Position numbers and translations under genes: made by a program. From Antedon mediterranea (lineage: Eukaryota; Echinodermata; Crinoidea; Comatulida; Antedonidae): a DNA stretch of 64,000 nucleotides. Location of the stretch: positions 11,661,001 to 11,725,000 of the forward strand of contig NC_092674.1 of the NCBI RefSeq assembly GCF_964355755.1, read 5' to 3'. The notes below the pieces were generated by a model, which did no database searches, was not told the origin of the DNA, and saw nothing but the letters and a program-made list of their open reading frames with translations. Positions within the stretch are counted from its first letter, which is position 1, and every line of letters begins with the position of its first letter. Of the stretch, positions 10,240-58,575 are shown piece by piece.

Positions 10240-10890
10240 AGGTATGAAGTCTATCAATATACAGTACCGCTTAATACAATACTTGTTGAGGCCATATCCA
10301 TCTATACATTTTAGTGTTATTCCACTTTAAAAAAGTCGATTTATATCAATACTCATCAACATACGATATAACGATAGAATTTATTGCAACTTGTCCATGT
10401 CGTATTCATCTACAAATAAAGTGTCTATTACCGTACTTTTAAAAATCTATTTATATCAATACCTATCAACGTATGTACGTGTGCATATTATATATACAAA
10501 ACTATATACATCAACATAAATGTCATATCATCTACAGTCATTAGTGTTATTTCACTTTTAATATTAGTAAATCCAAAGGCAAAATACTGAAATAATAACA
10601 ATGCTGTGGTCTCAATGGAGATACAAAAAAAAGAAGCGAAAAGCTAAATCAAAACGATAAAGTAAAACAGCCAGAAAAGTTAGCAGAGTTTTCGGGCAAC
10701 ACTAGCCCTTCATCAGTGCAAGTGAGGGTACTTGTACAAGATAGTGTTATTTAACGTTTAGTCGATTTATATCAATACACTCATCAACATATGTACGTGC
10801 AATTCACGTCTACAATCAATAGTGTTAATTCCTCTTTTAAAAGTCGATTTATATCAATATACTCATCAACATATGTACGTGTCCACGTCA
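10240..10890. repeat. diverged tandem repeat in foldback loop
   Basis: Between the arms, a diverged unit recurs four or five times. It includes TAGTGTTATTCCACTTTTAA-like, GTCGATTTATATCAATA and CATCAACATATGTACGTG-like segments (near 10310, 10430, 10540, 10745, 10810). Spacing is irregular, partly because the repeat at 10565-10740 interrupts it. Confidence 0.6.
10565..10740 (-). repeat. Penelope/retrozyme-like remnant with hammerhead-like core
   Basis: The segment AATCCAAAGGCAAAATACTG through AAAACAGCCAGAAAAG recurs at 58264-58395. On the minus strand it continues into CTGATGA (10716-10710), a GGGC/GCCC stem with a 7-nt loop, then GAAAA (near 10693). That is the order of hammerhead core elements. 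Stem I does not pair and the stem III closing pair is a mismatch, so this looks like a decayed motif. Confidence 0.4.
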
Positions 10891-14378: not shown

Positions 14379-16084
14379 CTTACTTACTTAATGTCATCCC
14401 ACTATTAAGTGGGTGCCATGATAATTTGTCTCCACACATCTCTATCAAGCATGCTCTTTCTCAGTTTACTCAGGTCTAGTTTGGTATCTTTCAACAGAAT
14501 GTCGAGCGAAGTCAGTTGAGGTCTTCCCACTTTCCTTTTCTCTTCTGGTTCCCAAAGGAGAACTCTTGAGGCAGGCTCAGAGCTTCTCATAACATGACCG
14601 GCAAGGCCCATGCGACGTCTTTGAATGATGGTCGTAAGACGGGGAAGGTTGGCATATAGTGTCTTGTTGGTGGCGTGTGAGGACCATGGGATGTTTTGGA
14701 CTTTCCTCAGCATGTGGGTGTATGCTCCATCCAATGATTTTGAGAGCGATGAAGTAAGACTCCATGTCTCACAGCCGTAAAGAAGAATGGCTTCAACTGT
14801 TGACTTAAAGAGGCGGATTTTTGTGGACTTGTTGATACGAGATGCCCATATTTTTGAAAGACTGTTCAGCGCACCCCATGCTTGACCAAGTCTTGCTTCG
14901 ACATCATGGTTAGTGGATGAACAGTAGCTTCCGAGGTACTTGAAATCCTCTACTTGTTCTATTGCTGATCCATCCAGTGTGAGAGTTATAGAAGGTGATG
15001 AGGGGTGTAAATGTATGAATTGGGTCTTCTTGATGTTTAAGTATAAACGTATAGCTTGTGTGGCTTGTTGAATTCTGTGCAGTAGATTTTCGGCAGCATG
15101 TATGGAATCTTCAAGAATGGCGATGTCATCGGCAAAGTCCAGGTCTGGTAGTACTTCAGCTGGATGTCTTCTACTACGGCGGAGGGTGAGACCGTCTGAT
15201 GATGTAGTTGCTGATCGCACTACATAGTCAAGGCAGACAATAAACAAGAATGGAGCAAAAGGGTCTCCTTGAACTACGCCAGAGTCGATGTTGAAGCAAT
15301 CAGTCTCACCATCTGGAGTCAGGACAACTGCTGATGTATTGATTACTCTGATGGCTTCTACAATTTTATGAGGGATGCCGTATGCTAAGAGGATCTTCAT
15401 CATGATGTTGCGATTGATGGAATCGAAGGATTTGCGAAAGTCAATCAAGATAATGACTGCCTCTTTGTGATGGTTCTTAACCTTTTCAACAATTCTCCTC
15501 AGTGCAAGAATGTGCGTAGTTGTTGATCGTGCCTGACAAAAGCCATTCTGGTTGGGGCGTAAAACTTCATTAATCACAGGACGTATCTTATTTAAAATCA
15601 GGCGATTGTAGATCTTTGCAGCCAATTGTGATAATGAAATACCCCTGTAGTTATCTGGTTTTGAAAGATCACCTTTTTTCGGGATATGAACGAAATTCCC
15701 CATTCTGATGGCCTGTTTCCATCAAGAATTTGATTGCAGAAAGAAGTGAGAGCTTTCTGGGTGCCAGGTAATTTCCATATTTTGATGGGAAGACCGTCAA
15801 GACCAGGTGCTTTGCCAGATTTCATCTGTTTGCAAGCAATTGACACCTCAGCCTCGGAGAACCTCTCGGAGCTTATCTGGTGGTTAAGTTGAAGATTTTG
15901 ACAATATCCATGTCATCTACCACTGAAGTCTCCACCGATAGTAGTTTGTGGAAGTGAGTTTTCCATGCTAGAAGACGATCCTCTCCCATGATGCAGGCAC
16001 TTTGAGATCTCTTCCCTGAGAGTTGTTTGACAAGTTGCCATGCAGATCTTAAGCTGTTGGCCGATGCTGGTTGATCGAAAAAAA
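14379..16084 (-). mobile_element. 5'-truncated RTE-like LINE with degenerate RT
   Basis: A minus-strand reverse transcriptase frame (15703-14405, 432 codons) has RT block Asp-Asn-Tyr-Arg-Gly-Ile-Ser-Leu, a Gln-Asn-Gly-Phe motif, Val-Gln-Gly-Asp-Pro, and the catalytic Phe-Ala-Asp-Asp. It is followed by the Tyr-Leu-Gly-Ser block and a C-terminal Gly-Arg-Pro-Gln segment typical of RTE/I-group LINEs. A frameshift near 15700 separates it from the upstream Lys-Ala-Pro-Gly-Leu-Asp-Gly-Leu-Pro part. The stop is only about 26 nt from the 3' end, whose minus-strand tail is TAAGTAAGTAAG, as in RTE-like elements. TGACCAAA flanks it (14371-14378, 16085-16092) as a target duplication, and the uninterrupted site is preserved in the other arm of the palindrome. 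Confidence 0.82.
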
Positions 16085-16249: not shown

Positions 16250-17010
16250 CTTCAGTATTTAGAATTATTAATTATTTATCTTTATCAACTGGTACGACCT
16301 TTCCTGATGATTTGAAGTTGGGTCTAGTTACATTTATTTTAAAGAAACCTTCACTGGATCATACTTGCATGGCAAATTTTCGATCTATTTCTAATGTCGC
16401 TTTTTTATCTAATTGATCCTTGAGAAATGCATTGCTTTAGATCTCATACATTTTCTTGACGACAATCTGTTCGACCCTCTTCAATCAGCATATAGAAAGC
16501 ACCATAGTACAGAGTCAGCCATTCTCAATGTGCATAATGATATTATTTTAACTCTGAATAAAGGTAATTGTCTTTTTTTTGTGTACCTCGACCTGTCGGC
16601 AGCTTCTGATACCATGGACTATTCCATTCTTATTGCAAGACTCTCGTCTATTGGTATCTGTGGATCTGCTCTAAATTGGTTCAAGTCATATTTGTCTTCT
16701 AGGAAGCAGCAGGTCCGGATTGGTAATGTCAAATCCACCTCTATCGACCTGATATGCGGTGTTCCTCAAGGATCAATACTGGGTCCAGTATTGTTTTTAG
16801 TTTACATCTCGCCCATGAGTGATATCATTAAGAGACATTATGTCCAGACATATCAACAACATTAGTAACTGATACCTACCACCTTCGTAACATAAGATCA
16901 ATTCGCAAACACACTCCTCGCTTATTAAACTTGTCCATGCACTAATAACATCACGGTTAGACTACTGCAATGCCATTTTGTTTGGTCTACCAAATTAAGA
17001 ACTTAATAAA
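16250..17010 (+). mobile_element. CR1/L2-type LINE RT fragment in palindrome loop
   Basis: The frame at 16413-16865 reads Gln-Ser-Ala-Tyr-Arg-Lys-His-His-Ser-Thr-Glu, then Tyr-Leu-Asp-Leu-Ser-Ala-Ala-Ser-Asp-Thr, then Gly-Val-Pro-Gln-Gly-Ser-Ile-Leu-Gly-Pro. These are standard RT blocks of the CR1/L2 group. A later out-of-frame piece near 16920-17000 reads Leu-Asp-Tyr-Cys-Asn-Ala, also typical. The segment carrying the catalytic Tyr-Ala-Asp-Asp is missing and the frame is broken, so it is a dead fragment. Confidence 0.8.
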
Positions 17011-21336: not shown

Positions 21337-21531
21337 AAGCCCCAGTGGTCTAGTGGTTAGAACATCTGCATATAAGTAGAAGGTTCCGGGTTTGAATCTC
21401 GGTTGGGCGAATTTTTCTCATTCTCACATATTTCCTTATCTTAATTGTTTCAAATTAATTAATTGATTAATTAAATTTCAGTATCTCACCGGGCGGTTTA
21501 GAATTTATTTTGTGCCTGTTTATATTTTTAT

Positions 21532-21560
<29 letters not shown>
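21337..21560 (+). mobile_element. tRNA-derived SINE
   Basis: The tRNA-like head has box A TGGTCTAGTGGTTAGAAC and box B GGTTTGAATCTC. The body CACCGGGCGGTTTAGAATTT is shared with the two SINEs at 57757-57933 and 58396-58575. It ends at a TA microsatellite (21533-21563). This is a diverged member of that family. Confidence 0.75.
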
Positions 21561-21567
<7 letters not shown>

Positions 21568-21660
21568 GGTTGAAATTTTCAGACCGTTTGGATAGAGTGC
21601 TCAATACCAAGGTAGAGCATAAATAAATAAAATAACAGCAGAAAACTTGGTTACTTCATT

Positions 21661-21731
21661 GTTTTAATCACTACAAATTTGTTTCGTACGACCAGCATGT
21701 AGCTGGCCGCACTCTTCAGGTGAAATATAAA
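21661..21731 (-). ncRNA. hammerhead ribozyme motif (type I), left arm
   Basis: Minus strand: CTGAAGA (21719-21713) matches the conserved CUGANGA box. An 11-bp stem II (GTGCGGCCAGC with GCTGGTCGTAC, two G-T pairs) carries a 5-nt loop. GAAAC (21685-21681) follows, then a very short stem III and GTA with predicted cleavage between 21672 and 21671. Stem I pairs TCAC with GTGA, and after an internal loop GTTTT with AAAAC. All core residues are present. Confidence 0.75.
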
Positions 21732-21956
21732 ACATAAGTGACACAGTTGTCTCATAGTGCTTAATAGAAGTGAGTCATCGGGAAGTCGTATACAATAGCC
21801 TATTGTTTTAGATAAACTGTTTGGATCTGCAATTTAGTAAGAATTTTTTCCTATGTCTACAATAGTACAAGTAGAGACTAACTCGTTCTTACGGTTCAGT
21901 GAGCATAGCTCTGGTTGACATATAATAACATACATACACAACTGTGTCACTTATGT

Positions 21957-22027
21957 TTTATATTTCACCTGAAGAGTGCAGCCAGCTACATGCTGGTCGT
22001 ACGAAACAAATTTGTAGTGATTGAAAC
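21957..22027 (+). ncRNA. hammerhead ribozyme motif (type I), right arm
   Basis: Plus strand: CTGAAGA (21969-21975), then stem II with one A-C mismatch relative to the left copy, then GAAAC (22003-22007), then GTA with predicted cleavage after 22016. Stem I has the inner TCAC/GTGA helix; the outer helix is shortened by an A-to-G change (GATTGAAAC). All core residues are intact. The short stem III suggests a dimer-type ribozyme, as in retrozymes and Penelope-like elements. Confidence 0.72.
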
Positions 22028-22123
22028 AATGAAGTAACCAAGTTTTCTGCTGTTATTTTATTTATTTATGCTCTACCTTGGTATTGAGCACTCTATCCAA
22101 ACGGTCTGAAAATTTCAACCTGA

Positions 22124-22125
<2 letters not shown>

Positions 22126-22194
<69 letters not shown>
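22126..22194. repeat. (TA)n microsatellite
   Basis: About 68 bp of alternating TA between the palindromic element and the stop codon of sialyltransferase A. It takes up the start of that gene's 3' UTR. Confidence 0.9.
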
Positions 22195-22197
<3 letters not shown>

Positions 22198-22510
22198 AAG
22201 ATGAATAAGCGTTTTCTTTACTTTTGATAGCTTACGACGTCTCCGTAAACGTTTAGTAATAAACCTTCTTCTCATGTTGTCCAAAAATGTTGTATGCAGA
22301 GTTCCGTTTTCGTTATCTTTTTCCTTCTTTTCTGGCCACGCGGGGTATTTAAAAGTTATGTTTTTCAAGGTTGACCACCGACGAAAAATAGCCTTTTCAG
22401 TGAAAAACAGATGACCACTCCGTGCCCTGTACTCACTCTTGTTATAATATGTACATTCTTGCGTATTATTCTCGTAATAGTGATATGGCACACTTGCGTT
22501 GGTGGTAGAA
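22195..22510 (-). CDS. ST6GALNAC-like: sialyltransferase A exon 4 (motifs III and VS, C-terminus)
   Basis: Last coding exon, acceptor TTTTCTACAG, first base completing an Asn codon. It contains motif III as Tyr-His-Tyr-Tyr-Glu (about residues 263-267). The motif VS His and Glu are in Ser-Gly-His-Leu-Phe-Phe-Thr-Glu-Lys (His about 287, Glu about 292), followed by Trp-Ser and Ile-Thr-Phe-x-Tyr-Pro. This is the ST6GalNAc III-VI pattern. Several N-x-S/T sites are present. The last roughly 35 residues are strongly basic (runs of Arg and Lys), an unusual tail also seen in copy B. The stop is at 22195. Confidence 0.9.
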
Positions 22511-22730
22511 CTGTAGAAAAGATTTGCAAGAGTTAATAATTGCATTAGAAGGTTCATTTTTCCTTAAATGCCCTTCAATCCAAACATTAAGACCAGCATA
22601 GGAAGTGTTAAATAAATATTGCTAGCTCATACACATGTTTTGGCCAATCCCTACCAGCAGTCAAATTTCACATTCTAGATCAAGCCTGAAACATGCATAG
22701 CCTTTTAGCATCCTGTCCTTCTCTTAAGCC

Positions 22731-22888
22731 TTGTCTACACTATCAAATTTTATGTGACAAAAAAATGTGATGTGCCCATATATAGACATGATGATGTCAT
22801 ATCACTACCATATTTAAACATAGCACTACCATATATGAGCACATCAAACCTTTTTGACACGTAAAGTTTGATAGTGTAGATAAAGCTT
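22731..22888. mobile_element. short MITE in sialyltransferase A intron 3
   Basis: The left end AAGCCTTGTCTACACTATCA is matched by the right end TTTGATAGTGTAGATAAAGC. A second member with the same ends lies at 38831-38927. Non-coding. Confidence 0.8.
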
Positions 22889-23123
22889 TAGATTGCTTCT
22901 ATCAAAGAGAAAAAAGAACCCCTTCCATTCCCAGCAAAAATCCTGTATTCATACAATGCAAAGTTTAACCATTTATATATTTTTGAAACTAAGATAGAGT
23001 AGAAAAGTACCGTACTTTACAAGTAGGGTCTACGTTATATGATATATCATAACGCCAAATATGATGATACCGGTGTCTACATAGTCAGAAATTGAGTTTT
23101 GAGCCGCAATTTGGGTGACTTAC

Positions 23124-23231
23124 TTGCAATAACTTTCATATGCCATACCGTATACAGTTATACTAGGGCATACTTCTATGGCAAACACCATTGTATACCA
23201 TCCTGTTGTCAACATTGTGCGAGCTTCTTTT
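23124..23231 (-). CDS. ST6GALNAC-like: sialyltransferase A exon 3 (motif S)
   Basis: 108-nt exon with acceptor GGTAACAG and donor GCAA|GTAAGT. It encodes sialyl motif S: Thr-Thr-Gly-Trp-Tyr-Thr-Met-Val-Phe-Ala, a Cys six residues after that alanine's Ile-Glu-Val, and Val-Tyr-Gly-Met. Motif S contributes to donor and acceptor binding and carries the cysteine that pairs with motif L. The copy B exon is the same length and phase. Confidence 0.93.
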
Positions 23232-23383
23232 CTGTTACCATTACATAATATAAACAATGATAATATACATTATTAGCATTGTATAAAATGTGCATAAATA
23301 TGTTAAATACTGTAACAATAATTCAAATATTGTATACTGTATACATTACGATATATGTTAGAAATAAAGATGTAAAGGTTGTA

Positions 23384-24793
23384 TCTATATATAAATTTAC
23401 GTAAGGGCAAAATTCGGTAAATCTCGGTTTATTTCTAGAATTTCTACTCGATGGTATATAAAGTTGGTTCATACTTTCGGTACTGATTTTAACCATCTGA
23501 TGTAACCCTGTTTACTAATTAAATTGAGTTAGGTAATTAGTTATTGACGATTAAAACGAATTTAGGTTCAACGATTTGCCCCAAATAGGGGTGTTTTCCG
23601 ATCGTGGTATACACTGTCTAATGGATGTCCATCTTGAAAAATACCCGCCACAAAAATACGAGGAGGCTTCGCATTTTCCTATCTCCTCCTACGATAATTG
23701 TTTTTAATAGCTGAAAACTGGTTGAACAGCTAGAGTACAGCATCATAATGTTGAAGACAGGCCGATTTTCTTTAAAAAATACTATTTTGATAGATTTAAT
23801 ATACGATTATACAAATGTATTGATTTGCGATGAATGGAACATTTCAATCTCTGTTTCACAAGTGTCTATTCCCTCAGGCGTCGTAAAGGCAAGTACAGTA
23901 CTGTATACTCGAAATTCGATCCATTTTTGTTTTCAATCTGTGCTGCAGAGGTTGGATATAATTTTTTTTTAAACGGATAATGAGCTAGCGTTTTCACTCG
24001 CCGTATATTATGTACAAATCTTTATTATTGCAGTTAAACCACCAACATCATCACCTTTCCCTCACTGGCATGAGTAGCGTTGTAAAACCAGTAGAGAATA
24101 GGCCTACGGTACATCACATGCCCTAAACGCAGAACAACTTTGGTGGGTAGGGTAGGAACCAACTTAAGTATGAATTGGCTCTAAGAAACAATTGAAAACC
24201 ATTAGGCCTACTAATTAAGTTGAGTTAGATAATTTAATATTTATTGACGATTAAATCGAATTTATGATTTTCCCCGAATAGAGGTGGTTTTCACAAATTG
24301 TTTTACATTATATTATAAACATATACACGTCGTAGTGATGTATCGTTACATGTGCTGTACTATTTCAATCGAGTAGGACGGTGATAGTTTCAACAAAGTA
24401 TTACATCGCAATGTTTTACTGTGTTTAGTGGTATATTATTTGTAAAACATGAAAGCAATTAATATTTCGTTACTAAATGGATAAAGAATATATTTTAACA
24501 TTGTTCCTCTTTGCACCCATCCTCTTCCCCATCCCTCAACCCTAATGTTACATACAAAACACAAATTAAGTTTGTTTAAATTTGACTTAAACAATTGGTC
24601 TTATTTTGTGACAAGTTTCTCTTTCGGAAGTAATAGGGTGCTAATTTTAGTTGAGTACATAAATCACAGTGTCTATTTATTCGTTCCTGTACACGACATG
24701 TATTATTGTCCTGCGGTACGTACATTTGAAATCGCCAGTTTTTTAACGCTGAAATTATTATGTATTCGAGAACCATCTGTGGGCACGACCTAG
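23384..24793 (+). mobile_element. non-autonomous Helitron, 3' hairpin lost
   Basis: Begins TCTATATATAAATTTACGTA after an A (23383) and ends GACCTAG before T (24794). The interior is closely related to the Helitron at 34475-36838. Unlike that copy, it stops at the first CTAG, before the terminal hairpin, as if the hairpin had been removed between two CTAG motifs. Located in intron 2 of sialyltransferase A. No Rep/helicase coding. Confidence 0.75.
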
Positions 24794-24870
24794 TAATATA
24801 AATTTACGTTAGGGTACAATTAAAAAACATTTACGTGTAAATAATAACCAGAGATCGTATACAGTCTCGG
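24794..24870 (+). mobile_element. second Helitron 5' end joined to the previous one
   Basis: TAATATAAATTTACGTTAGGG directly follows the CTAG at 24790-24793 and matches the family's 5' end (TCTATATATAAATTTACG) with small changes. I cannot find where this copy ends. Confidence 0.5.
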
Positions 24871-25364
24871 TTACTCACCCTAGCTATTTCGATAGGTAGA
24901 TTTGAAAACAGCTTATTCTGACTATACGATATTGCTCAATATTTATCTTGTAGAGCGACTTGAAATAGTTTCAATCAAAATCTTTCATATGTCGTGTCTA
25001 CGACGCGTTTAAAAATAAATTTCAAACGGTGAGTTACATTAAGCCTTTTTCCTATACTAGGCAAATTTAAAAAAAAAGCGTCGCAGGAAGGGATTTGAAA
25101 GATAGAAACATGAATCCACACGCATGAGCATAAGATGAAGCTTTCGATTCGCGCGAACAAATTCGCCTAGTGGTGGAAAAATGCCTTTTTAAAATCTTGT
25201 TGCACATTTCTTTATCTCGCGTTGTCTAACTAGATTGGTCACCGCAATTATTTCCGAAATTATGGTCAATAGAAAAAATTTTAAATAATCGCCAAAGAAA
25301 TGGACTATCAACAAAATTACTTATACCCTACGTCTCAATTAAATTATAACGACGATTGAATTAC

Positions 25365-25792
25365 CTTGTAAAACCTGTTTCTTGTTTAAAAAGGTCTTCA
25401 GCTAAAACCATTCTGTCTGGTAGAGATGAGTATATTGGAATATCTTGGTAAAGGTAGGCTAAAAGAAAGGCGTAGCGGTATTCTTCGTTTGTGAGCTTCG
25501 GGACTTCTTCAGTCATACTCATCCAACTAATGATAATCATCTGAGTTCGAGTTGTGTTGTTTACCAAGACCTCCAATAGTACATTCTTTTTGCCTAGCGA
25601 TTTCCTAAAGTTCCGATGGCCCACAACTCTGACGGTCGTGCGAGTGCCAACATCATGTTCAAAGCCAACCACAGAGGCTAGATTCATTCGTATGACACAG
25701 TGGTGTTGATCAATCTCTCTTCCAGCGTTTGATCCTAATAAATGACCAGAGCTTGTCACGACAGCACAGTTATTGCAAGTAAGACGAAGACT
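25365..25792 (-). CDS. ST6GALNAC-like: sialyltransferase A exon 2 (motif L)
   Basis: Golgi type II enzyme that transfers sialic acid from CMP-sialic acid in alpha-2,6 linkage to GalNAc- or GlcNAc-containing glycans (CAZy GT29). This 428-nt exon holds motif L: [16 protein letters not shown], then Ile-Asp and Arg-Met-Asn (about residues 84-112), followed by Asp-Val-Gly-x-Arg-Thr. The SSGHL variant of motif L is typical of ST6GalNAc III-VI. Acceptor CTGATTAG and donor CAAG|GTAATT put the exon in phase with exons 1 and 3. The four exons sum to 1077 nt (358 codons plus stop) with no stop inside. Subfamily within ST6GALNAC3-6 is not resolved. Confidence 0.93.
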
Positions 25793-29389: not shown

Positions 29390-29454
29390 TTTAATCTTAA
29401 TAATATGTATTCTAAATATTGTAATTTCCCTAGGAAGCTCTTTACTCTAATCTT

Positions 29455-32400
29455 ATGAATTTACATTGTATAACACTAAACGTTAGAGGAGCTAGAAATA
29501 TAAATAAGCAACATAAGCTATTCCAATGGGTAACAGATCAAAAAGCGGATATATGTCTGCTTCAGGAAACCCATCTAACAAATGAGATTATTAATAAATC
29601 AAACTTTGTTTGGGAAGGTGAAGCGATCCATAGTATAGGTAATTCACATAGTAGAGGAGTGTCGATACTATTACGAAAAGGTCTTGAATGCAAAATTGTT
29701 AAAAAGTTAACTGATATTGATGGAAGATATATATTTCTTAATTTAATGATAAATGAAAAGGAATTGGACATTATAAATATTTATGCTCCTAATGAAAGCA
29801 AAAATAGAAGTGCATTCTTTAGGACTATACACAAATGTTACAATGACTTTGATGGAGGGAAGGGTAATTCTATCATTCTAGGTGGAGATCTGAAATGCAT
29901 CATGAATAGTGACATTGACCAAAAAGGTAGCGCAAATAGGTCTGATAAATCTGTTTTTACGATTAAAAACCTAATGAAAAATTTAAATTTAAATGATATT
30001 TGGAGATCCAAAAACATGAATAAGCGACAATTTACGTGGCGTAAGAGATTTAACAACATTTTCCGTAGGCTGGATTACTGGTTAATATCAGAAGATCTCT
30101 TTTCAAATGGAGATGTTTTAGCCTGTGACATTCGTCCAGCTATTCTCACAGATCACCAGGCGGTATCAATTAAAATAGATTTGCATGAAAAAAAAACGCG
30201 GTCCTGGTTTATGGATGTTCAACAATAGCTTTCTGAAAGATGAAACATTAAAAAAATTAGTAATTAAAATAATTGATGTTTCAATACTAAAAAATAATAG
30301 AGAACCTGTAAGTGCAAGTTTGTTATGGGAGCTTGTAAAAACAAAAATAAAAGAATTTTCAATTGCATACGGAAAACAAAAAAATAAAAACCAGAATAAA
30401 AAGAAAGAAAAATTACAAAAACAAATAAAAAACTTAAATGAAACAATTATGAATACACAAAATTGTGATATAACCATTGAAAATAAAATTGAAAACAAAA
30501 AAATAGAGCTTGAAAACATTTATAATGTAGAAGCAAAAAGCGCGCAAATTAGGTCCAGAGTAAAATGGATAGAGGAAGGCGAGCGGAATACAAAATACTT
30601 TCTTGGGTTAGAAAGATCCAAAAGTAAAATGAAACACATAAAAAGTTTAATTACTAAAGATGGGAGCTTAGCAACGAGCCCAATTGATATTTTAAAGGAA
30701 CAAATACAACATTTCGAAGGTTTATACGCAAAAAATGTTATAAACCCTGGAAAAATTAATAAATACCTTTGTAATTCTATTATAAACAAGCTTTCAGAAA
30801 TAGAAAAAGAAAATTGTGAAGGTTACGTCACTATTGATGAATGTAAAAAGGCCATTTCAATGATGGAAAAAAATAAAACACCTGGATCGGATGGTCTAAG
30901 TGTTGAATTTTATGTGTTCTTTTGGAATAATATTAAACATTTAATTTGCGATGCGTTAAATGAAAGTTATAATTCTCAAGAATTATCCTTTTCGCAAAAA
31001 CGAGGTGTAATCACCCTTTTGTTCAAGGATGGAGAAAGAGAAAATTTGAATAATTGGCGTCCCATTACCCTCTTAAACACCGATTACAAAATTCTTGCAC
31101 ATGTATTAAGTAACAGACTTAAAATGGTTATTAAATCAATAGTAAGTTCAGACCAAAATGGTTATATAAAAGGCCGTTTCGCTGGTGAAAACATTCGGTT
31201 AATAGAAGACCTGCTTTATTATACAGAGTGTAATGATATCGAAGGGGCAATAATTACCGTAGATTTTAAGAAGGCTTTTGACTCTATTAGTAGAGATTTT
31301 ATGTTCAATGTTCTAGAAAAGTTTAACTTTGGAATGTTCTTTTGTAACTGGGTAAAAGTATTATACAATAACGTTGAATGTGTCACAGTTAACAATGGTT
31401 GGGTTTCAAACAATTTTAAAATGGAAAGAGGTATTAGACAAGGTTGTCCTCTATCTGCTCTGTTATTCATTTTAGTGGTTGAAGTAATGGCATCTAGAAT
31501 AAGAAACAAAGATGACTATAAGGGTATTAAACTTCCAAATAATGAAAATAACATAGAAGCTAGAATAAGCCAATTAGCCGATGATACTGTTTTGTATGTT
31601 GGTAATGACAAAAGTATTAAGTCAGCAGTCAGTGTAATTGAACGTTTTTGTGAAGTATCTGGAATGACACTAAATAAAAAAAAAAACAATGCTTTTTGGA
31701 TTGGTAAATGGAAGAACAGAATAGATAGACCTTTAGAATTAAATTGGGTAAAACACCCGATCAAAATTTTAGGCATATATGTAGGGTATAATACAGAAGA
31801 ATGTACCAGAAAAAACTGGGATGTTAAATTAATAGAGCTAGAAAAGACTTTAAAACAATGGAATGCTAGAAATCGCTCAATTTTTGGTAGAATAATAATC
31901 CTGAAAAGTCTTGCACTATCTAAATTAACATATACTGCAAATATCACTGATGTTCCAAAATATGTATATACACAAGTTACAAATCTAATATATAATTTTA
32001 TTTTGAACAATAAAAGGGAAAAGATAAAAAGAAAAACTCTAATTGGTGATGTTGAGATGGGAGGCATTAAAATGCCCGATTTTACTCTTCATGTTAACGC
32101 ACTCATGTGTGGCTGGTTAAAAAGAATTATGAATGATGATGGTGCTAAATGGAAAAATATTCCAATGTATTATATTAAAAAAATATGTGATGTTAATGTT
32201 TTACTTAATATGTCATGTTATAACATTATTGATGTTAATTCTGATAAAATTCCACTGTTTTACAAAAATATGATAAAAGCCTACATAAATTATAACAGAA
32301 TCTCTAAAAAAAAACCTGAAACTTATAACGATATAATGAATGAGCAACTGTGGGGAAACCACTACGTTAAACTAAAAAAAAAAACGCTTTTCTACAAGCA

Positions 32401-33218
32401 TTGGATTGACAGTGGCATTATCAGTATTAAAGACATTGTTAATAAGAACACTTTTTTTAACATCAAACGAAATACTGGTAAAACTACAATGTAAAACAAA
32501 CTGGTTAAATGAGTATTTGTGCATTATTAAGGCAATACCAATTCAATGGAAACGTATTATTAAGGAGGTAGATATTTTCAATTGTGATGATAATGATGAA
32601 TTAGTTGGGACCAAGTATGAGATTAATACTACCAAACTAATATACTCATAATTTGTGAAAGAATATTTCATTATTCCAATGTCACAACTAAAATGGGAAG
32701 AGTACTTCAATGATAACAACATTGATTGGAAAACTTCTTGGTTACGGAAAGTATGTAAAATGAAAGATAAGAAACTAGCACAATTCAATTATAAGATGTT
32801 ACATAGAATACTGCCTACCAACAAACGGCTGTATCAGTGGAAAGTTAAGGAAACACAAACGTGTGACAAATGTGGAGAAATTGAAAATGAAAATCATTTG
32901 TTTTTTAGTTGTAGATTTATTCAGAAATATTGGAGGAAAATGCTTAGTATCTTTGTAAGTTTAAATCACAATAATATATCATTTAAACAATTAATACTAG
33001 GAACGGGAGATAAGCTAATAGATTATATTTACACTTTTGCAGCATTTACTATTTATAGAATATAAATGTTATCTGCACTAAATAAGCCAGTGGGTAAATC
33101 TTTATGGAATTCATTTAAAAGCAATATGTTATATAACATTGAATGTGAAACATATAACAATAAAGAAACAAGTATAGAAAAATGGGTAGCTTTAAGAAAT
33201 AAGATTATGATAATATAA
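29455..33218 (+). pseudogene. L1 ORF2 endonuclease-reverse transcriptase, broken
   Basis: AP-like endonuclease at 29455-30180 (Leu-Asn-Val-Arg-Gly-Ala, Leu-Leu-Gln-Glu-Thr-His, later Thr-Asp-His-Gln-Ala-Val). RT at about 30860-31650 (Gly-Ser-Asp-Gly-Leu-Ser; Asp-Gln-Asn-Gly-Tyr-Ile; Arg-Gln-Gly-Cys-Pro-Leu; catalytic Leu-Ala-Asp-Asp). C-terminal Cys-x2-Cys...His...Cys near 32862-32913. Lesions: a shift at the run of nine A (30188-30196), consistent with one extra A; a second frame change near 32450-32465; and in-frame stops at 32649-32651 and 33063-33065. The recognisable frame ends at 33218. Confidence 0.88.
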
Positions 33219-47132: not shown

Positions 47133-48184
47133 CACAGAGCACTGATTGTAGGCTTATGAATTGACGTCATTTCGACAAATCACGTTCACGTGTTTACATA
47201 GGCTATGTAATAATAAAAAAATATGCCTGTGTATCACTGGTACATTTAGTTTCAGATTTTATTTCACACAAAATATAACACAATACATACATATAAATGA
47301 TAAAAAATGTGTGTAGAGATTGCATTAAGCCAACTTGGCTTTAAGTCTGAACGTCCAAATGAAACAAATATATACATATTGTATAGTAATGACTGAAATA
47401 AGCAAGAAAAAAATATATATGTATGCACATTTGATTCAATAATACATAAAATAAATAAAGAACAGGAACAATTTCAGCTGAATTATTTGATTACAAAAGT
47501 ATGTGGTTATAGAAGGATAAAGCAAACTGATTTTTAAATGAATTTTTTTTTAGCCCTGATAACTGATGATCAAGAACAATCACTTCTAGAGTAAATCATC
47601 TATCCTTATAATTATCGAAACTAAATGACCAATTATCTTTCAGATAACATGTGTGTTTTGTATGTTGGTTGTATTTGTTATGTTGGTGTATATCAATGAA
47701 GTACCCAGTTATAAAAACAGTGATGGCAAATTCTACAACCGAATAAGGTGAATTTCGTTTTATTGAAATTGTTTTGATTAGAAAGTAAACATATATTTTG
47801 AAATGATGATGGAAAATAAATACTTAAAAAATGTAGGAAGGTAGGACTGTAAAATATTATTCTAGAAAAAAACACCTTAGTAGTTCTGTCCATAAATTAG
47901 CGTTAATAATATGCTTATGACGGCCTTCTCGTACAGAAAATAAAAGATCTAGGCTTGGCCTAAGCCGCACACATAGCCTGGCCTAAACCCGTGTACTACC
48001 ACCGGCCCAGCGATGGAATAGCTTCAGGAGCGCGCGCTGCTACATGTAGAGACTACAATGTCAGATCCCAATGTCATTACGTCGTACGTTCACTGTCAAC
48101 TACGACCCATGTGGGTATGAACTTCGTGCACGTTAACACAAGTTAGTGTAAAAGGAAAATGATAATTTATTATTTATATTACAG
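47133..48184. other. upstream region and intron of the sulfotransferase
   Basis: AT-rich, with a more GC-rich part at 47950-48130 that could hold a promoter or 5' exon. I do not see a membrane-anchor exon for the sulfotransferase here. Confidence 0.4.
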
Positions 48185-49337
48185 GAATAGACCATTAGGC
48201 GATTATCATGCAAATCTAGAAAGCCACAAAATTGATTTTTGGAGAACATTTGGCAATGTTTCAAGCTGTTTACCAAAAAAGAAAAATGTTTGTTACATAA
48301 AGACGCACAAGACTGGTAGTACGACCATCGGACACATCATGAATATATTTGGATTTCGCCACAACTTATCATTTGCGTTCAACAAAAATAAAACTACTAA
48401 TGGCCATATAGGTTCTTTTACGGTTTTAAACAAAGATACTCCTCGTCATAGTTTTCTCCCCCCATTAGGAGTTGAAGAAGGTGACTACGATAATTATAAG
48501 TATAACTTGACATCTGTTCACTTCCGCTATATCAGAACAGGACTCATTTCATTCATGAACCCTGATACAAAATACATAACAATAATTCGGGAACTAGCCG
48601 GGCAATTCGAGTCTGCGTTTGACCAATTCCAATTAAAGAGAGCATTGGTAAGAAATAAAACTGAATCAGACTATGAAAACATTAAAAGGTTTTTACAATA
48701 TCCTGACCATTATTGGGAAAACCTGAGGAAAGTCAAGTGGCGAGGGAATTCTGGAAGAGCTTGGTATTATGCAAGAAACAATCAACTGTTTGATCTCGGA
48801 TTAGATCATAAATATCACGGGGACACACAGCTAGTGGAAAGATATCTTGATCTGTTGAACAACGAGTTTGAAATGGTTATAATTTTAGAACACATTGGTG
48901 AATCGCTTGTTGTCCTAAGGAAAGAGCTGTGTTGGTCTTGGAATGATGTACTATATATAGCTAAAAATGGACGTGAAAACGTAACAGCATTACCTAACAA
49001 ATTACAGGAGAAGATACGAGCGTGGAATTTTGCAGATAGAATGCTTTACTCGTATTTTAATAAAACACTCTGGCAAAAAGTACAAAGATATGGCTCAACG
49101 TGTGAATCAGACTTAGCTCTTTTTAGAAAGTTGAGGCAACAGGTTAATGACGTTTGTGAGGTTAAAACACATATTAGAAATAATAAAGTTTTTCATAACC
49201 AAGCAAAAGGGGCGTCCTTAGAGTGTGAGCTTTTAGGTATGCGGAAAAATAGGATGTTCAAAAAAGTTTTTCTACGCCAAGGAGGAGACAAAGCGACAGA
49301 ACAAATTGACGAAAAAGATTTTGACCCTTTCTTTTAA
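48185..49337 (+). CDS. GAL3ST-like: galactose-3-O-sulfotransferase-like, main exon
   Basis: Golgi sulfotransferase that moves sulfate from PAPS to O-3 of galactose on glycolipids or glycoproteins. The exon begins after acceptor TTATATTACAG (48184). The in-frame ATG at 48159 lies in the intron side and is not the start. The 5'-phosphosulfate loop is Lys-Thr-His-Lys-Thr-Gly-Ser-Thr-Thr-Ile (about 48300). The 3'-phosphate region is Tyr-Ile-Thr-Ile-Ile-Arg-Glu-Leu-Ala-Gly-Gln-Phe-Glu-Ser-Ala-Phe (about 48575), with Leu where most relatives have Pro. The C-terminal block Arg-Ala-Trp-Asn-Phe-Ala-Asp...Leu-Tyr-x-Tyr-Phe-Asn fits the GAL3ST family (Pfam sulfotransfer_3-type Gal-3-O). 384 codons from the splice site; the signal-anchor exon upstream is not found. 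Could equally be a cerebroside-sulfotransferase paralog. Confidence 0.9.
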
Positions 49338-53664: not shown

Positions 53665-54007
53665 TTACAATCTATGCTTTGTTACTGGTACCTTTCCTTG
53701 TCTTGTTCCTGTTATGTTCGATGTTCGATTAGTATCATGTTGTTTTCTGCGCCGCCGCTTAGATCCCCGACGACGTTGAATCATTTTATTCAAAAATTTT
53801 GTATTTACTGTTCCATTTTCTTTTATTTTTTCTGGCCATGTGGGGTATCTAAAAGTAATGTTTCTGGAGGTTGACCACCGACGGAAAATAGCCTTTTCGG
53901 TAATAAAGAGATGACCACTACGTGTTTTGTATTCACTCTTGTTATAATAGCTGCATTCTAGCTTACTATCCTCATAATAGTGATATGGCACACTAGTGTT
54001 TGTAGAA
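53665..54007 (-). CDS. ST6GALNAC-like: sialyltransferase B exon 4 (motifs III and VS)
   Basis: Acceptor TTCTAATTTAG and the same phase as copy A. Tyr-His-Tyr-Tyr-Glu (motif III) and Ser-Gly-His-Leu-Phe-Ile-Thr-Glu-Lys (motif VS) are intact, followed by Phe-Arg-Arg-Trp-Ser. It is 27 nt longer than the copy A exon. The C-terminal tail again has an Arg/Lys-rich run, then a neutral, Thr-rich end. Confidence 0.88.
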
Positions 54008-54254
54008 CTAAATTAGAAAATATGTATACGATTTTAGAATTTGTATGTTTTAACACAATTCAGTACAACAAACCACTTTAAAAGTTATCTGTAACACAAC
54101 TCATAAGAATGGGTATGTAAAATGTATTAAAGAAGAGAATAAAAATGAATGATGCTTATGATAGACACAATGTTATTTACGATTCTATTATTTATGTACT
54201 GATTGATATTTATGTATTATCTGTATGTATTATTATTATCTTTATTAGTGTTAT

Positions 54255-54375
54255 TATTTTTGTTATTGTTGTTGCTGCTGCTGCTGTTGCTGTTGCTGTT
54301 GTTATTGTTATTGCTATTGTTATTGCTATTGCTATTGTTATTGTCTATTGTTATTATTGCTGTTGTTGTTTAACA
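54255..54375. repeat. GTT/GCT/ATT trinucleotide-rich microsatellite
   Basis: Impure tract of GTT, GCT and ATT in intron 3 of sialyltransferase B. The open frame across it encodes Val/Ala/Ile runs and is not a gene. Confidence 0.85.
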
Positions 54376-54486
54376 TATAATTATTTCAGAGCTTCTGCTC
54401 TTTGCACATTACTAAGACGATAATACGATGGTATTAAATAATGAAAACGCACAGTTCCTAATGAAATAGTTGTTATATTGCGTTAC

Positions 54487-54594
54487 CTGCACAAATTCTC
54501 ATATGCCATCCCGTATACAGTCATACTAGGGCAGAATTCCATAGCAAACACCATTGTATACCATCCGGTTGTCAGCATAGTTTTAGTTTCTTCT
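54487..54594 (-). CDS. ST6GALNAC-like: sialyltransferase B exon 3 (motif S)
   Basis: 108 nt, identical in length and phase to copy A. It reads Met-Leu-Thr-Thr-Gly-Trp-Tyr-Thr-Met-Val-Phe-Ala-Met-Glu-Phe-Cys then Val-Tyr-Gly-Met-Ala-Tyr-Glu. Donor TGCAG|GTAACG and acceptor TTACAACAG are good. Confidence 0.92.
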
Positions 54595-54867
54595 CTGTTG
54601 TAACAATAATATTATTGATGATTAATAATATTGATGATTAATAAAATAATAATAAAATGATAAGGTAGAAAAATAACAAGAACTGGCTTTTGAAATCAAG
54701 AGAATAAACAGCGCAAAAGTTAGAGTGGTCTTGGAACAATTTTAAAAACTGCAAAAACATGGTATGCAAAGTTAAATGTACCGGAAATTGTAGGGAGAGC
54801 TCAAATGTCGGCCATCCTGGGAACAGCACATTTATTGAGGAAGGTGTTTTGTCTCTAAGCTGCGCGA

Positions 54868-54924
54868 AGCAGCAGCAACAACAACAACAACAGCAGCAGC
54901 AGCAGCAGCAACAACAACAACAAA
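54868..54924 (+). repeat. (CAG/CAA)n microsatellite
   Basis: About 19 glutamine-type triplets in intron 2 of sialyltransferase B. It is intronic, so the polyglutamine frame is not a protein feature. Confidence 0.9.
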
Positions 54925-55267
54925 ACACTAGGCATACACAAAATCAAATTAAAATGTCTAAAACAATAGTCATACAAACATACATAACATTCATTAATTG
55001 TTTTATAAATCTCTTATGCCTAATGTTCTAAAGTAAACTTGATTAATCCGTTGCTTCCATATTGAATCGATAACCATAATTATCAAAGTGCTTACCAAAA
55101 GCTGAACGTGTAATAGAACCATTTAATATAAAAATTAAACGTTTGTCATGCAGTAGAACTAATACTTCACTTACATGACACAAACTTAACCACATAGTAA
55201 GGACACATTATGTAGAAGTAATAGTAATAATAATTTTGCCATTTTTTGGCCAGTAATAATGTAGTAC

Positions 55268-55695
55268 CTTGTAAATCCCGTTTCTTGTTTAAAGAGGTCT
55301 TCAGCTAAAACCATTCTGTCGGGTAGAGCAGAGTATATTTGAACATTTTGGTAAAGGTTGGCTAGAAGAAAGGCGTAGCGGTATTCTTCGTTTGTGAGCT
55401 TCGGGACTTCTTCAGTCATACTCATCCAACTAATGATAATCATCTGAGTTCGAGTTGTGTTGTTTACTAAGATCTCTCGCAGTACGATCTCACTGCTCAG
55501 ACCCTTGTTAAAGTTACGGTGGCCCACAACTCTGATGGTCGTGCGAGTGCCCACATCATGTTCAAAGCCAACCACAGAGGCTATATTCATTCGAATGACA
55601 CAGTGGTGTTGATCAATCTCTCTTCCAGCGTTTGATCCTAATAAATGACCAGAGCTTGTCACAACAGCACAGTCATTGCAAATAAGGCGAAGACT
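55268..55695 (-). CDS. ST6GALNAC-like: sialyltransferase B exon 2 (motif L)
   Basis: Same 428-nt length and splice phases as copy A. Motif L [16 protein letters not shown] is intact, and the two copies differ mainly in a short block after Val-Gly-His-Arg-Asn-Phe. The intron to exon 3 is about 0.7 kb here, against about 2.1 kb in copy A. The gene arose by tandem duplication with copy A. The catalytic part looks functional. Confidence 0.92.
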
Positions 55696-57759: not shown

Positions 57760-57933
57760 ACATTAGGCAATGAACATTAATTCGAAACCGCCCGGTGATA
57801 TACTGAAATTTAATTAATTAATTTGAAACGATAAAGATGAGGAAATCTGTGAGAATGAGAAAAAGTCGCCCCAACCGAGACTCGAACTCGGACCGCCTGC
57901 TTGATATGCAGATGTCCTAACCATTAGACCATG
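57757..57933 (-). mobile_element. tRNA-derived SINE, minus orientation
   Basis: Minus strand: TGGTCTAATGGTTAGGACAT (box A), GAGTTCGAGTCTCGG (box B), then the CACCGGGCGGTTTCGAATTA body and TA-rich tail (57720-57757). The head resembles tRNA-Asp/Glu. It is a near-identical inverted partner of 58396-58575. Confidence 0.85.
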
Positions 57934-58190: not shown

Positions 58191-58253
58191 TGTCTCTGGC
58201 GGGATTCGAACCTGCAACCTCTCGCTTACAGGGCGAGTATCATACCACTAGAA
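58191..58253 (-). other. tRNA-like sequence (Pro/Thr-like), truncated
   Basis: Minus strand: TAGTGGTATGATACTCGC, anticodon arm CTCGC-CCTGTAA-GCGAG (anticodon TGT), then GGTTCGAATCCCGCC and GAGACA. The body resembles tRNA-Pro, but the anticodon would read Thr. The 5' acceptor strand is replaced by TA repeats, so no acceptor stem can form. Probably the head of another SINE, not a working tRNA gene. Confidence 0.6.
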
Positions 58254-58263
58254 TATATATATA

Positions 58264-58395
58264 TCGTATATCCAAAGGCAAATTACTGAAAAAAATGACA
58301 ATGCTGTGGGTATCAGTGGCTGGATCTCAATGGAGATACAACAAAAAAAGCGAAAAGCTAAATCAAAACGATAAAGTAAAACAGCCACATATATA
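58264..58395. repeat. repeat shared with foldback loop
   Basis: ATCCAAAGGCAAATTACTGA through AAAACAGCCACA is highly similar to 10565-10680. The adjoining hammerhead-like part found there is absent here. Confidence 0.7.
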
Positions 58396-58575
58396 GACCG
58401 AGTGGTCTAATGGTTAGGACATCTGCATATCAAGCAGGCGGTCCGAGTTCGAGTCTCGGTTGGGGCGACTTTTTCTCATTCTCACTGATTTCCTCATCTT
58501 TATCGTTTCAAATTAATTAAATTTCAGTATATCACCGGGCGGTTTCGAATTAATGTTCATTGCCTAATGTGTTTA
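58396..58575 (+). mobile_element. tRNA-derived SINE, plus orientation
   Basis: GACCGAGTGGTCTAATGGTT (box A), GAGTTCGAGTCTCGG (box B), the same CACCGGGCGGTTTCGAATTA body and a TA-rich end. Anticodon loop ATATCAA. It faces the SINE at 57757-57933 head to head. Confidence 0.85.

What the first reader, a model, noticed from the sequence alone, without database searches (positions are those of the whole stretch)
21564..22125. Inverted pair of type I hammerhead ribozymes in one palindromic repeat
Both arms carry every hammerhead core residue: CTGAAGA, an 11-bp stem II, GAAAC, then GTA at the cleavage site with TCAC/GTGA closing stem I. They point outward on opposite strands. Hammerheads of this short-stem-III type are known from Penelope-like elements and retrozymes. 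Here they sit in a palindrome without coding capacity, directly after a host gene's stop codon and TA repeat. A read-through transcript of sialyltransferase A (minus strand) would contain the left ribozyme and could be cut in its 3' UTR.
Basis: partly seen in the sequence, partly recalled or inferred. Interest (0 to 1): 0.82.

Follow-up and report, generated by a model that had tools for sequence, protein, structure and literature searches.

The report
Palindromic Penelope-like retroelement carrying hammerhead ribozymes
The palindrome looks like two truncated copies of a jumping gene of the Penelope-like kind, joined head to head and each carrying a self-cutting RNA motif, and its relatives in the same genome suggest that such insertions start copying at a different RNA site on each strand of the target DNA.

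Summary
In detail: 186-bp arms, 184/186 identical, each with a full type I hammerhead core. No Rfam hammerhead model reaches threshold (best 11.3 of 34 bits), but three divergent families of the same genome keep the core after their ORF while stems I and II change pairwise. The locus is two 5'-truncated copies of a Penelope-like element (PLE), head to head in (TA)n; the 'spacer' encodes residues 612-649 of the element's ORF. Copies end with or without a ~54-nt tail. Pattern searches of the genome give 35 head-to-head pairs: 34 tailed/untailed, one tailed/tailed (this window), no untailed/untailed; two further families give 9 of 9 and 7 of 7. PLE hammerheads, inverted pLTRs and a tail on one pLTR are in print (PMC6155905, PMC3846280, PMC11167929); I did not see the 50-of-51 rule there. 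It favours two-ended target priming from two RNA start sites. PLE identity rests on anatomy and recalled motifs: Pfam and PDB gave no support. Self-cleavage is untested.

The parts
21535..21564 (.). (TA)n target flank, left
   Evidence: sequence; TA- or A+T-rich flanks also at the other 13 head-to-head copies
21565..21933 (-). left PLE copy, 5'-truncated, 3' end (tailed) at 21565
   Evidence: L001 1128-1496, which is window 21565-21933, aligns to ref 2426-2786 of copy L034 at 97.6%
21565..21750 (-). left arm = pLTR with tail
21666..21725 (-). type I hammerhead motif, left; predicted cut 21672/21671
21565..21618 (-). about 54-nt tail between the two alternative 3' ends, left
21599..21618 (-). 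tail hairpin GCTC...GAGC, left
   Evidence: present in four families
21811..21932 (-). remnant of the ORF 3' end, residues 612-649, with a 5-nt frameshift
   Evidence: tblastn: 22/22 and 17/17 residues identical
21934..21937 (.). head-to-head junction: 4 nt between the two aligned copies
21938..22123 (+). right PLE copy = right arm/pLTR with tail
21963..22022 (+). type I hammerhead motif, right; predicted cut 22016/22017; one stem II mismatch
22070..22089 (+). tail hairpin, right
   Evidence: folded, but 33 of 200 shuffles of the 65-nt stretch fold as well
22125..22195 (.). (TA)n target flank, right
   Evidence: sequence
22195..22563 (-). likely last exon of a sialyltransferase (host gene, not part of the element)
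   Evidence: GT29 exon upstream at 23120-23269

Best explanation
This is an insertion of a Penelope-like retroelement: two 5'-truncated cDNA copies joined head to head, both 3' ends outward in a (TA)n target. Each copy ends in a pLTR with a type I hammerhead. The two-copy structure arises when the element's endonuclease opens both strands of an A+T-rich site and each DNA end primes reverse transcription of element RNA. In the usual event one cDNA starts at the downstream site (end with the ~54-nt tail) and the other about 54 nt upstream (end without it). The two short cDNAs are then joined at their 5' ends, often with microhomology. The window locus is the one exception seen: both ends start at the tail site. 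The hammerhead probably cuts multimeric or read-through element RNA. Shown: ends, orientation, pairing statistics, core conservation with covariation. Inferred: two-strand cleavage, which end primes where, and any ribozyme role.
For: Copies in the genome: 44 matches to the arm at 94-100% identity, from 40 scored of 235 candidates. In L034 the arm follows a 649-aa frame with YRDD and GIY-YIG-like motifs (motif names recalled). The window spacer matches the end of that ORF. Ends: 68 tailed and 75 untailed sites, reversed-pattern controls 0. Head-to-head neighbours within 6 kb: 34 of 35 tailed/untailed; label permutation mean 17.7, 0 of 100000 reach 34. Replicates: 9 of 9 (1038 of 100000 permutations as high) and 7 of 7 (3783 of 100000). 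The centres of 14 pairs differ: -7 to +6 nt at the join in 11; 26, 79 and 80 nt between the aligned parts in three. Arms of the three longest pairs share source variants: L036 0/1286, L023 1/702, L025 7/1305 differences, against 1.27, 0.82 and 1.51% between loci. Hammerhead across four families: 91.0% of cells paired against 73.6% in shuffles and at most 47.3% when slid. In print: PAc PLE cleaves and extends both strands, has two RT starts and prefers AT-rich DNA (PMC11167929); inverted pLTRs, tail on one, head-to-head most frequent (PMC3846280).
Against: No significant Pfam or PDB sequence match for the ORF. Pfam GIY-YIG lists 150 places in the genome (150 scored of 355 candidates), and by eye none overlaps a place of this family. 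No Rfam hammerhead at threshold. The window locus itself breaks the end rule. PMC11167929 saw no difference in RT start between strands in vitro, found insertion independent of the hammerhead core, and no reads ending at its cut site. Shared variants within a pair also fit self-copying. The window arms differ at 2 of 129 compared sites (1.6%, against 1.1% between loci), so they give no sign of one common source. Minimum-energy folds of single divergent copies are not decisive: z -1.7 (L059), -1.4 (L062) and +0.7 (L066), stem III not as drawn.
Confidence: 0.75

Rival explanations
1. Self-priming (fold-back): the first cDNA or an antisense template folds back and copies itself, giving a head-to-head inverted repeat (proposed for rotifer Penelope in PMC3846280).
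For: Arms of the three longest pairs come from one source; the window is tailed/tailed and its palindrome runs into the TA flanks, as fold-back copying would give.
Against: A copy made from the first arm should carry the tail too, yet 50 of 51 pairs have exactly one tailed end; the untailed end also sits in TA repeats, as a separate start would.
Confidence: 0.17
2. A DNA transposon or MITE with long terminal inverted repeats and TA target that happens to contain hammerheads.
For: Inverted termini, TA flanks, window copy symmetrical.
Against: Centres differ at the 14 pairs compared, ends alternate between two forms, the centre is the 3' part of an RT-like ORF, and 32 tailed and 41 untailed ends have no partner in the lists.
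Confidence: 0.02
3. A non-autonomous metazoan retrozyme (type I hammerhead repeats moved as circular RNA).
For: Type I hammerhead with short stem III and low GC, like those in PMC7229834.
Against: No direct tandem of hammerhead units at the window; longer copies are contiguous with an ORF; 4 same-direction against 35 head-to-head neighbours.
Confidence: 0.04
4. A domesticated ribozyme that controls the sialyltransferase mRNA 3' end.
For: Sits right after the stop codon and TA repeat.
Against: One of many dispersed, nearly identical copies; predicted to be sequestered in the long hairpin in that transcript.
Confidence: 0.02

Closest known systems
Penelope-like elements with inverted pLTRs (Adineta vaga Pen2a, Pen5, Pen6; PMC3846280, passages seen)
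   Same: Head-to-head inverted pLTRs, optional tail on one of them, 5' truncation, a microhomology 5' junction, preference for simple A+T-rich targets
   Different: There 8-10 bp TSDs in several cases and none in others, a 31-bp tail, and the word ribozyme does not occur in the main text; here a tail of about 54 nt, (TA)n targets, a hammerhead in each arm and 51 pairs counted
Poseidon of Anolis (PAc), PMC11167929 (parts 1 and 2 of 4)
   Same: Hammerhead in the pLTR, two RT start sites that define the tail, AT-rich target, both strands cleaved and extended
   Different: The PAc hammerhead overlaps the ORF start and cleaves only with protein added; here a fuller hammerhead, seen after the ORF; no exclusive start site per strand reported in the parts read
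PLE minimal hammerheads (review PMC6155905, passages)
   Same: Hammerhead motif in the element's LTRs
   Different: Those usually lack helix III and the tertiary contacts; this one has a 3-4 bp helix III and an 11-bp helix II (tertiary contacts not tested)
Metazoan retrozymes (PMC7229834, parts 1-3 of 6)
   Same: Type I hammerhead with short helix III; the U-U mismatch at the base of helix II in one axolotl type resembles the 66% family here
   Different: Non-autonomous direct tandems and circRNAs; not seen here

Membership tests
Penelope-like element | ORF with telomerase-like RT | tested here: inconclusive
   649-aa frame with YRDD (motif recalled); no significant Pfam or PDB match
Penelope-like element | C-terminal GIY-YIG endonuclease | tested here: inconclusive
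   GVVY...YVG...R...E order read by eye (recalled motif); no Pfam hit for the piece and no overlap seen with the 150 GIY-YIG places listed
Penelope-like element | pLTRs in tandem or inverted arrangement | tested here: met
   35 head-to-head, 4 same-direction, 4 tail-to-tail neighbours within 6 kb
Penelope-like element | optional tail at the 3' end | tested here: met
   tail hairpin in four families
Penelope-like element | hammerhead motif in the pLTR | tested here: met
Penelope-like element | A+T-rich insertion sites | tested here: met
   outer flanks of the 14 pairs; note that the end patterns demand TA by construction
Hammerhead ribozyme type I | core CUGANGA/GAA/UH with three stems, opened by stem I | tested here: met
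Hammerhead ribozyme type I | match to Rfam's type I model at its cut-off (a detection test, not a defining trait) | tested here: not met
   11.3 bits at best, cut-off 34
Hammerhead ribozyme type I | compensatory changes in stems | tested here: met
   7 of 12 pairs with double changes; stem III does not vary; 7 distinct rows from 4 families; one row (L069) has a broken stem I
Hammerhead ribozyme type I | self-cleavage | not testable with these tools
   needs in vitro transcription
Metazoan retrozyme | direct tandem repeats of a 170-400 nt unit | tested here: not met
Metazoan retrozyme | circular RNA | not testable with these tools
   no RNA data

The most novel reading that the evidence does not exclude
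PLE integration is obligately asymmetric and two-ended: each insertion complex assigns the two target strands to two different start sites on element RNA, flanking a conserved tail hairpin, so that a complete two-ended insertion carries one tailed and one untailed end. The window copy is a rare failure of that assignment.
Probability: 0.55. Interest if true: 0.75.

Novelty: new member of a known kind. Interest (0 to 1): 0.55.

Why it matters
How PLEs integrate is open: PMC11167929 leaves the steps after first priming to be validated, and PMC3846280 reads its inverted structures as self-priming. A count in which 50 of 51 head-to-head insertions, over three families, have exactly one tailed end gives a sharp prediction for the reconstituted enzyme and argues against simple fold-back copying. 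The hammerheads are fuller than those usual in PLEs and covary between families, which makes them good test molecules.

Tried and rejected
Rfam scans of the whole window and of sub-stretches: no hammerhead above threshold; kept as evidence against. Viral contig patterns: no match. Protein scans of viral and prokaryote contigs: 2 and 20 stretches matched a peptide pattern, none confirmed. Pfam and PDB for the ORF: nothing significant. Pfam GIY-YIG over the genome: this family not seen among the places listed. Host identity: one paper search on a guess settled nothing; the host is left unnamed. MITE, retrozyme and mRNA-control readings set aside for the reasons given under rivals. Dropped rows: the 14 pairs and the pair list leave out L033, L047 and L049, whose inverted pieces are partial (L027 is only); the pair list holds none of the loci; the 18 loci are not in the core count; L065 (60% family) has the core start but breaks off into another repeat before the GAA part, gave no core and was not put into; L067 and L039 gave no match to the pattern. 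Structure prediction was not used: its stated rule does not cover loci of the genome search.

Full report
Check of the observation. The two arms (21565-21750 minus, 21938-22123 plus) are 184/186 identical, and the palindrome runs on into the TA repeats (216 nt per arm, 99%). Each arm has a full type I hammerhead core with stem I TCAC/GTGA, stem II of 11 positions per side, GAA, a 3-4 bp stem III and a GUA cleavage site. The right arm has one A.C mismatch in stem II. A descriptor finds these two sites and no others in the window; 300 shuffles gave 4 hits in all, none with stem II of 8 bp or more. Folding gives the hammerhead shape for both (z -3.75 left, -2.12 right).

What it is. The window lies in an unnamed 354-Mb genome of 18 contigs, by its genes probably an animal (inferred). 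The arm has 44 matches there at 94-100%, from 40 scored of 235 candidates. I read 39 distinct places: the window and 18 others at about 3 kb (L001 and L009 are both the window), those 18 and two more at 9.9 kb, and 18 further at 1.2-3.2 kb. The arm is the 3' end of a longer element. In L034 it follows a 649-aa open frame with YRDD and GIY-YIG-like motifs (motif naming is recalled). The 'spacer' of the window is the 3' end of that ORF plus the stretch behind it: residues 612-649 are encoded at 21932-21811 minus, across a 5-nt frameshift. The window feature is therefore two 5'-truncated copies head to head, the left one longer, both 3' ends outward in (TA)n. Pfam and PDB did not recognise the ORF, and the 150 GIY-YIG places listed for the genome (150 scored of 355 candidates) do not, by eye, include this family. 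I file it as a Penelope-like element on its anatomy, not on a domain hit.

Core conservation. 27 of 30 arms scanned (21 loci, the window included) match the pattern of core plus CAC/GTG of stem I; L039 has a core change, L035 and L040 stem I changes. The 18 loci were not in that count. Related elements of the same genome, found with the C-terminal piece (150 scored of 335 candidates), include groups near 66, 60 and 42% identity. I fetched 13 short 3' stretches of these groups. Of the 12 put into, 11 match the full core pattern (L069 with stem I broken) and one, L067, does not; L065 was left out because it breaks off inside the motif. In an alignment of 8 rows (7 distinct, four families), 91.0% of cells pair against 73.6% in shuffles and at most 47.3% when partners are slid; 7 of 12 pairs show changes on both sides; the covariation score is 0.468 against 0.222 (0 of 500). 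Stem III does not vary, and further pair types were not in excess (369 of 500 shuffles at least as high). Related rows can exceed shuffles without structure, as the tool warns. Single-sequence folds of L059, L062 and L066 are not decisive (z -1.7, -1.4, +0.7). A hairpin GCTC...GAGC in the tail is present in all four families, but 33 of 200 shuffles of the window's tail stretch fold at least as well.

The two ends. Copies end either at arm position 182-186 (tailed) or about 128-132 (untailed). Patterns for the two junctions with TA found 68 tailed and 75 untailed ends, with 0 matches to the reversed patterns. Neighbouring ends within 6 kb form 35 head-to-head, 4 tail-to-tail and 4 same-direction pairs. 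Of the 35, 34 are tailed/untailed, none untailed/untailed and one tailed/tailed, which is the window locus. Shuffled labels give 17.7 on average and none of 100000 reached 34. Among the 34 the tail is on the lower end in 14 and on the upper in 20. 32 tailed and 41 untailed ends have no head-to-head partner in these lists. The 66% family (27 tailed, 20 untailed) gives 9 of 9 (1038 of 100000 permutations as high), and the 60% family (47 and 30) gives 7 of 7 (3783 of 100000). The tailed pattern does not ask for a full TA repeat; the others do, so ends in other DNA are missed. The pattern also misses the untailed end in L063, whose partner L062 is tailed; that pair is not counted.

How it arises. 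The centres of the 14 head-to-head pairs compared all differ. Eleven are joined with up to 7 bp of overlap or up to 6 extra bases; L022, L025 and L052 have 26, 79 and 80 nt between the aligned parts, which in L025 is more of the element (same letters as L030) and in L052 looks like a piece of the tRNA-like repeat. Arms of the three longest pairs share source variants: differences L036 0/1286, L023 1/702, L025 7/1305, against between-locus means of 1.27, 0.82 and 1.51%. The short pairs say little: L001 (window) 2/129, L022 2/176, L024 1/133, L028 2/113, L037 0/130, L026 12/222 of which 11 are one gap, and the L027 pieces 1/85. This fits one source per insertion and either two-ended priming or self-copying. 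The one-tailed rule favours two-ended priming from two start sites, since fold-back should copy the tail. PMC11167929 (parts 1 and 2 read) reports in vitro cleavage and extension of both strands, two RT start sites that define the tail and an A+T-rich target, but no strand difference in start site, insertion independent of the hammerhead core, and no reads ending at its cut site. PMC3846280 (passages) reports head-to-head inverted pLTRs with the tail on one of them and favours self-priming. The window locus, tailed at both ends, could be a fold-back or a mis-assigned event.

The gene beside it. The sialyltransferase claim is right in position. In a minus-strand RNA spanning the palindrome, the minimum-energy fold pairs 70 of 71 nt of the left hammerhead stretch into the long hairpin, which argues against efficient cutting there, although folding during transcription may differ.

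Novelty. Searches of the paper library found PLE hammerheads, inverted pLTRs and tails already described, and no statement of the one-tailed/one-untailed rule in the listings, passages and parts I saw; most subscription papers are not in that library. I rate the element a new member of a known kind, and the end rule as its interesting part.

Noticed in passing
window 10560-10744 (-), core 10716-10690: Fragment of another repeat family with a minimal hammerhead-like motif CTGATGA-A-GGGC..GCCC-GAAA without a clear stem III, next to (TA)n in some loci (L014, L020, L067, L069); 83% identical to a piece of L067. No Rfam match.
   Followed up: partly
window 58257-58387: A further 77% match to the same minimal-hammerhead repeat, near tRNA-like sequences.
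   Followed up: no
window 21339-21409 (+), also 57874-57932, 58191-58262, 58396-58467: tRNA-like repeats; the one at 21339 runs up to the TA tract into which the element inserted, as similar sequence does beside L010 and L018.
   Followed up: partly
L052 613-692: About 80 nt between the two head-to-head copies look like a captured piece of the tRNA-like repeat, judged by eye.
   Followed up: no
window 14405-15721 (-), 16413-16865 (+), 29434-30228 and 30179-32494 (+): Pieces of other retroelements with RVT_1 and, at 29434, an Exo_endo_phos domain.
   Followed up: no
window 22195-25792 and 53665-55695 (-): Two copies of a GT29 sialyltransferase gene region; a Gal-3-O-sulfotransferase at 48147-49337 (+).
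   Followed up: partly
window 22722-22783 and 22831-22892: 62-nt inverted repeat, 84% complementary, 47 nt apart, MITE-like.
   Followed up: no
G000 C3:6919744-6919801: Two tailed ends of the 66% family abut directly tail to tail.
   Followed up: no
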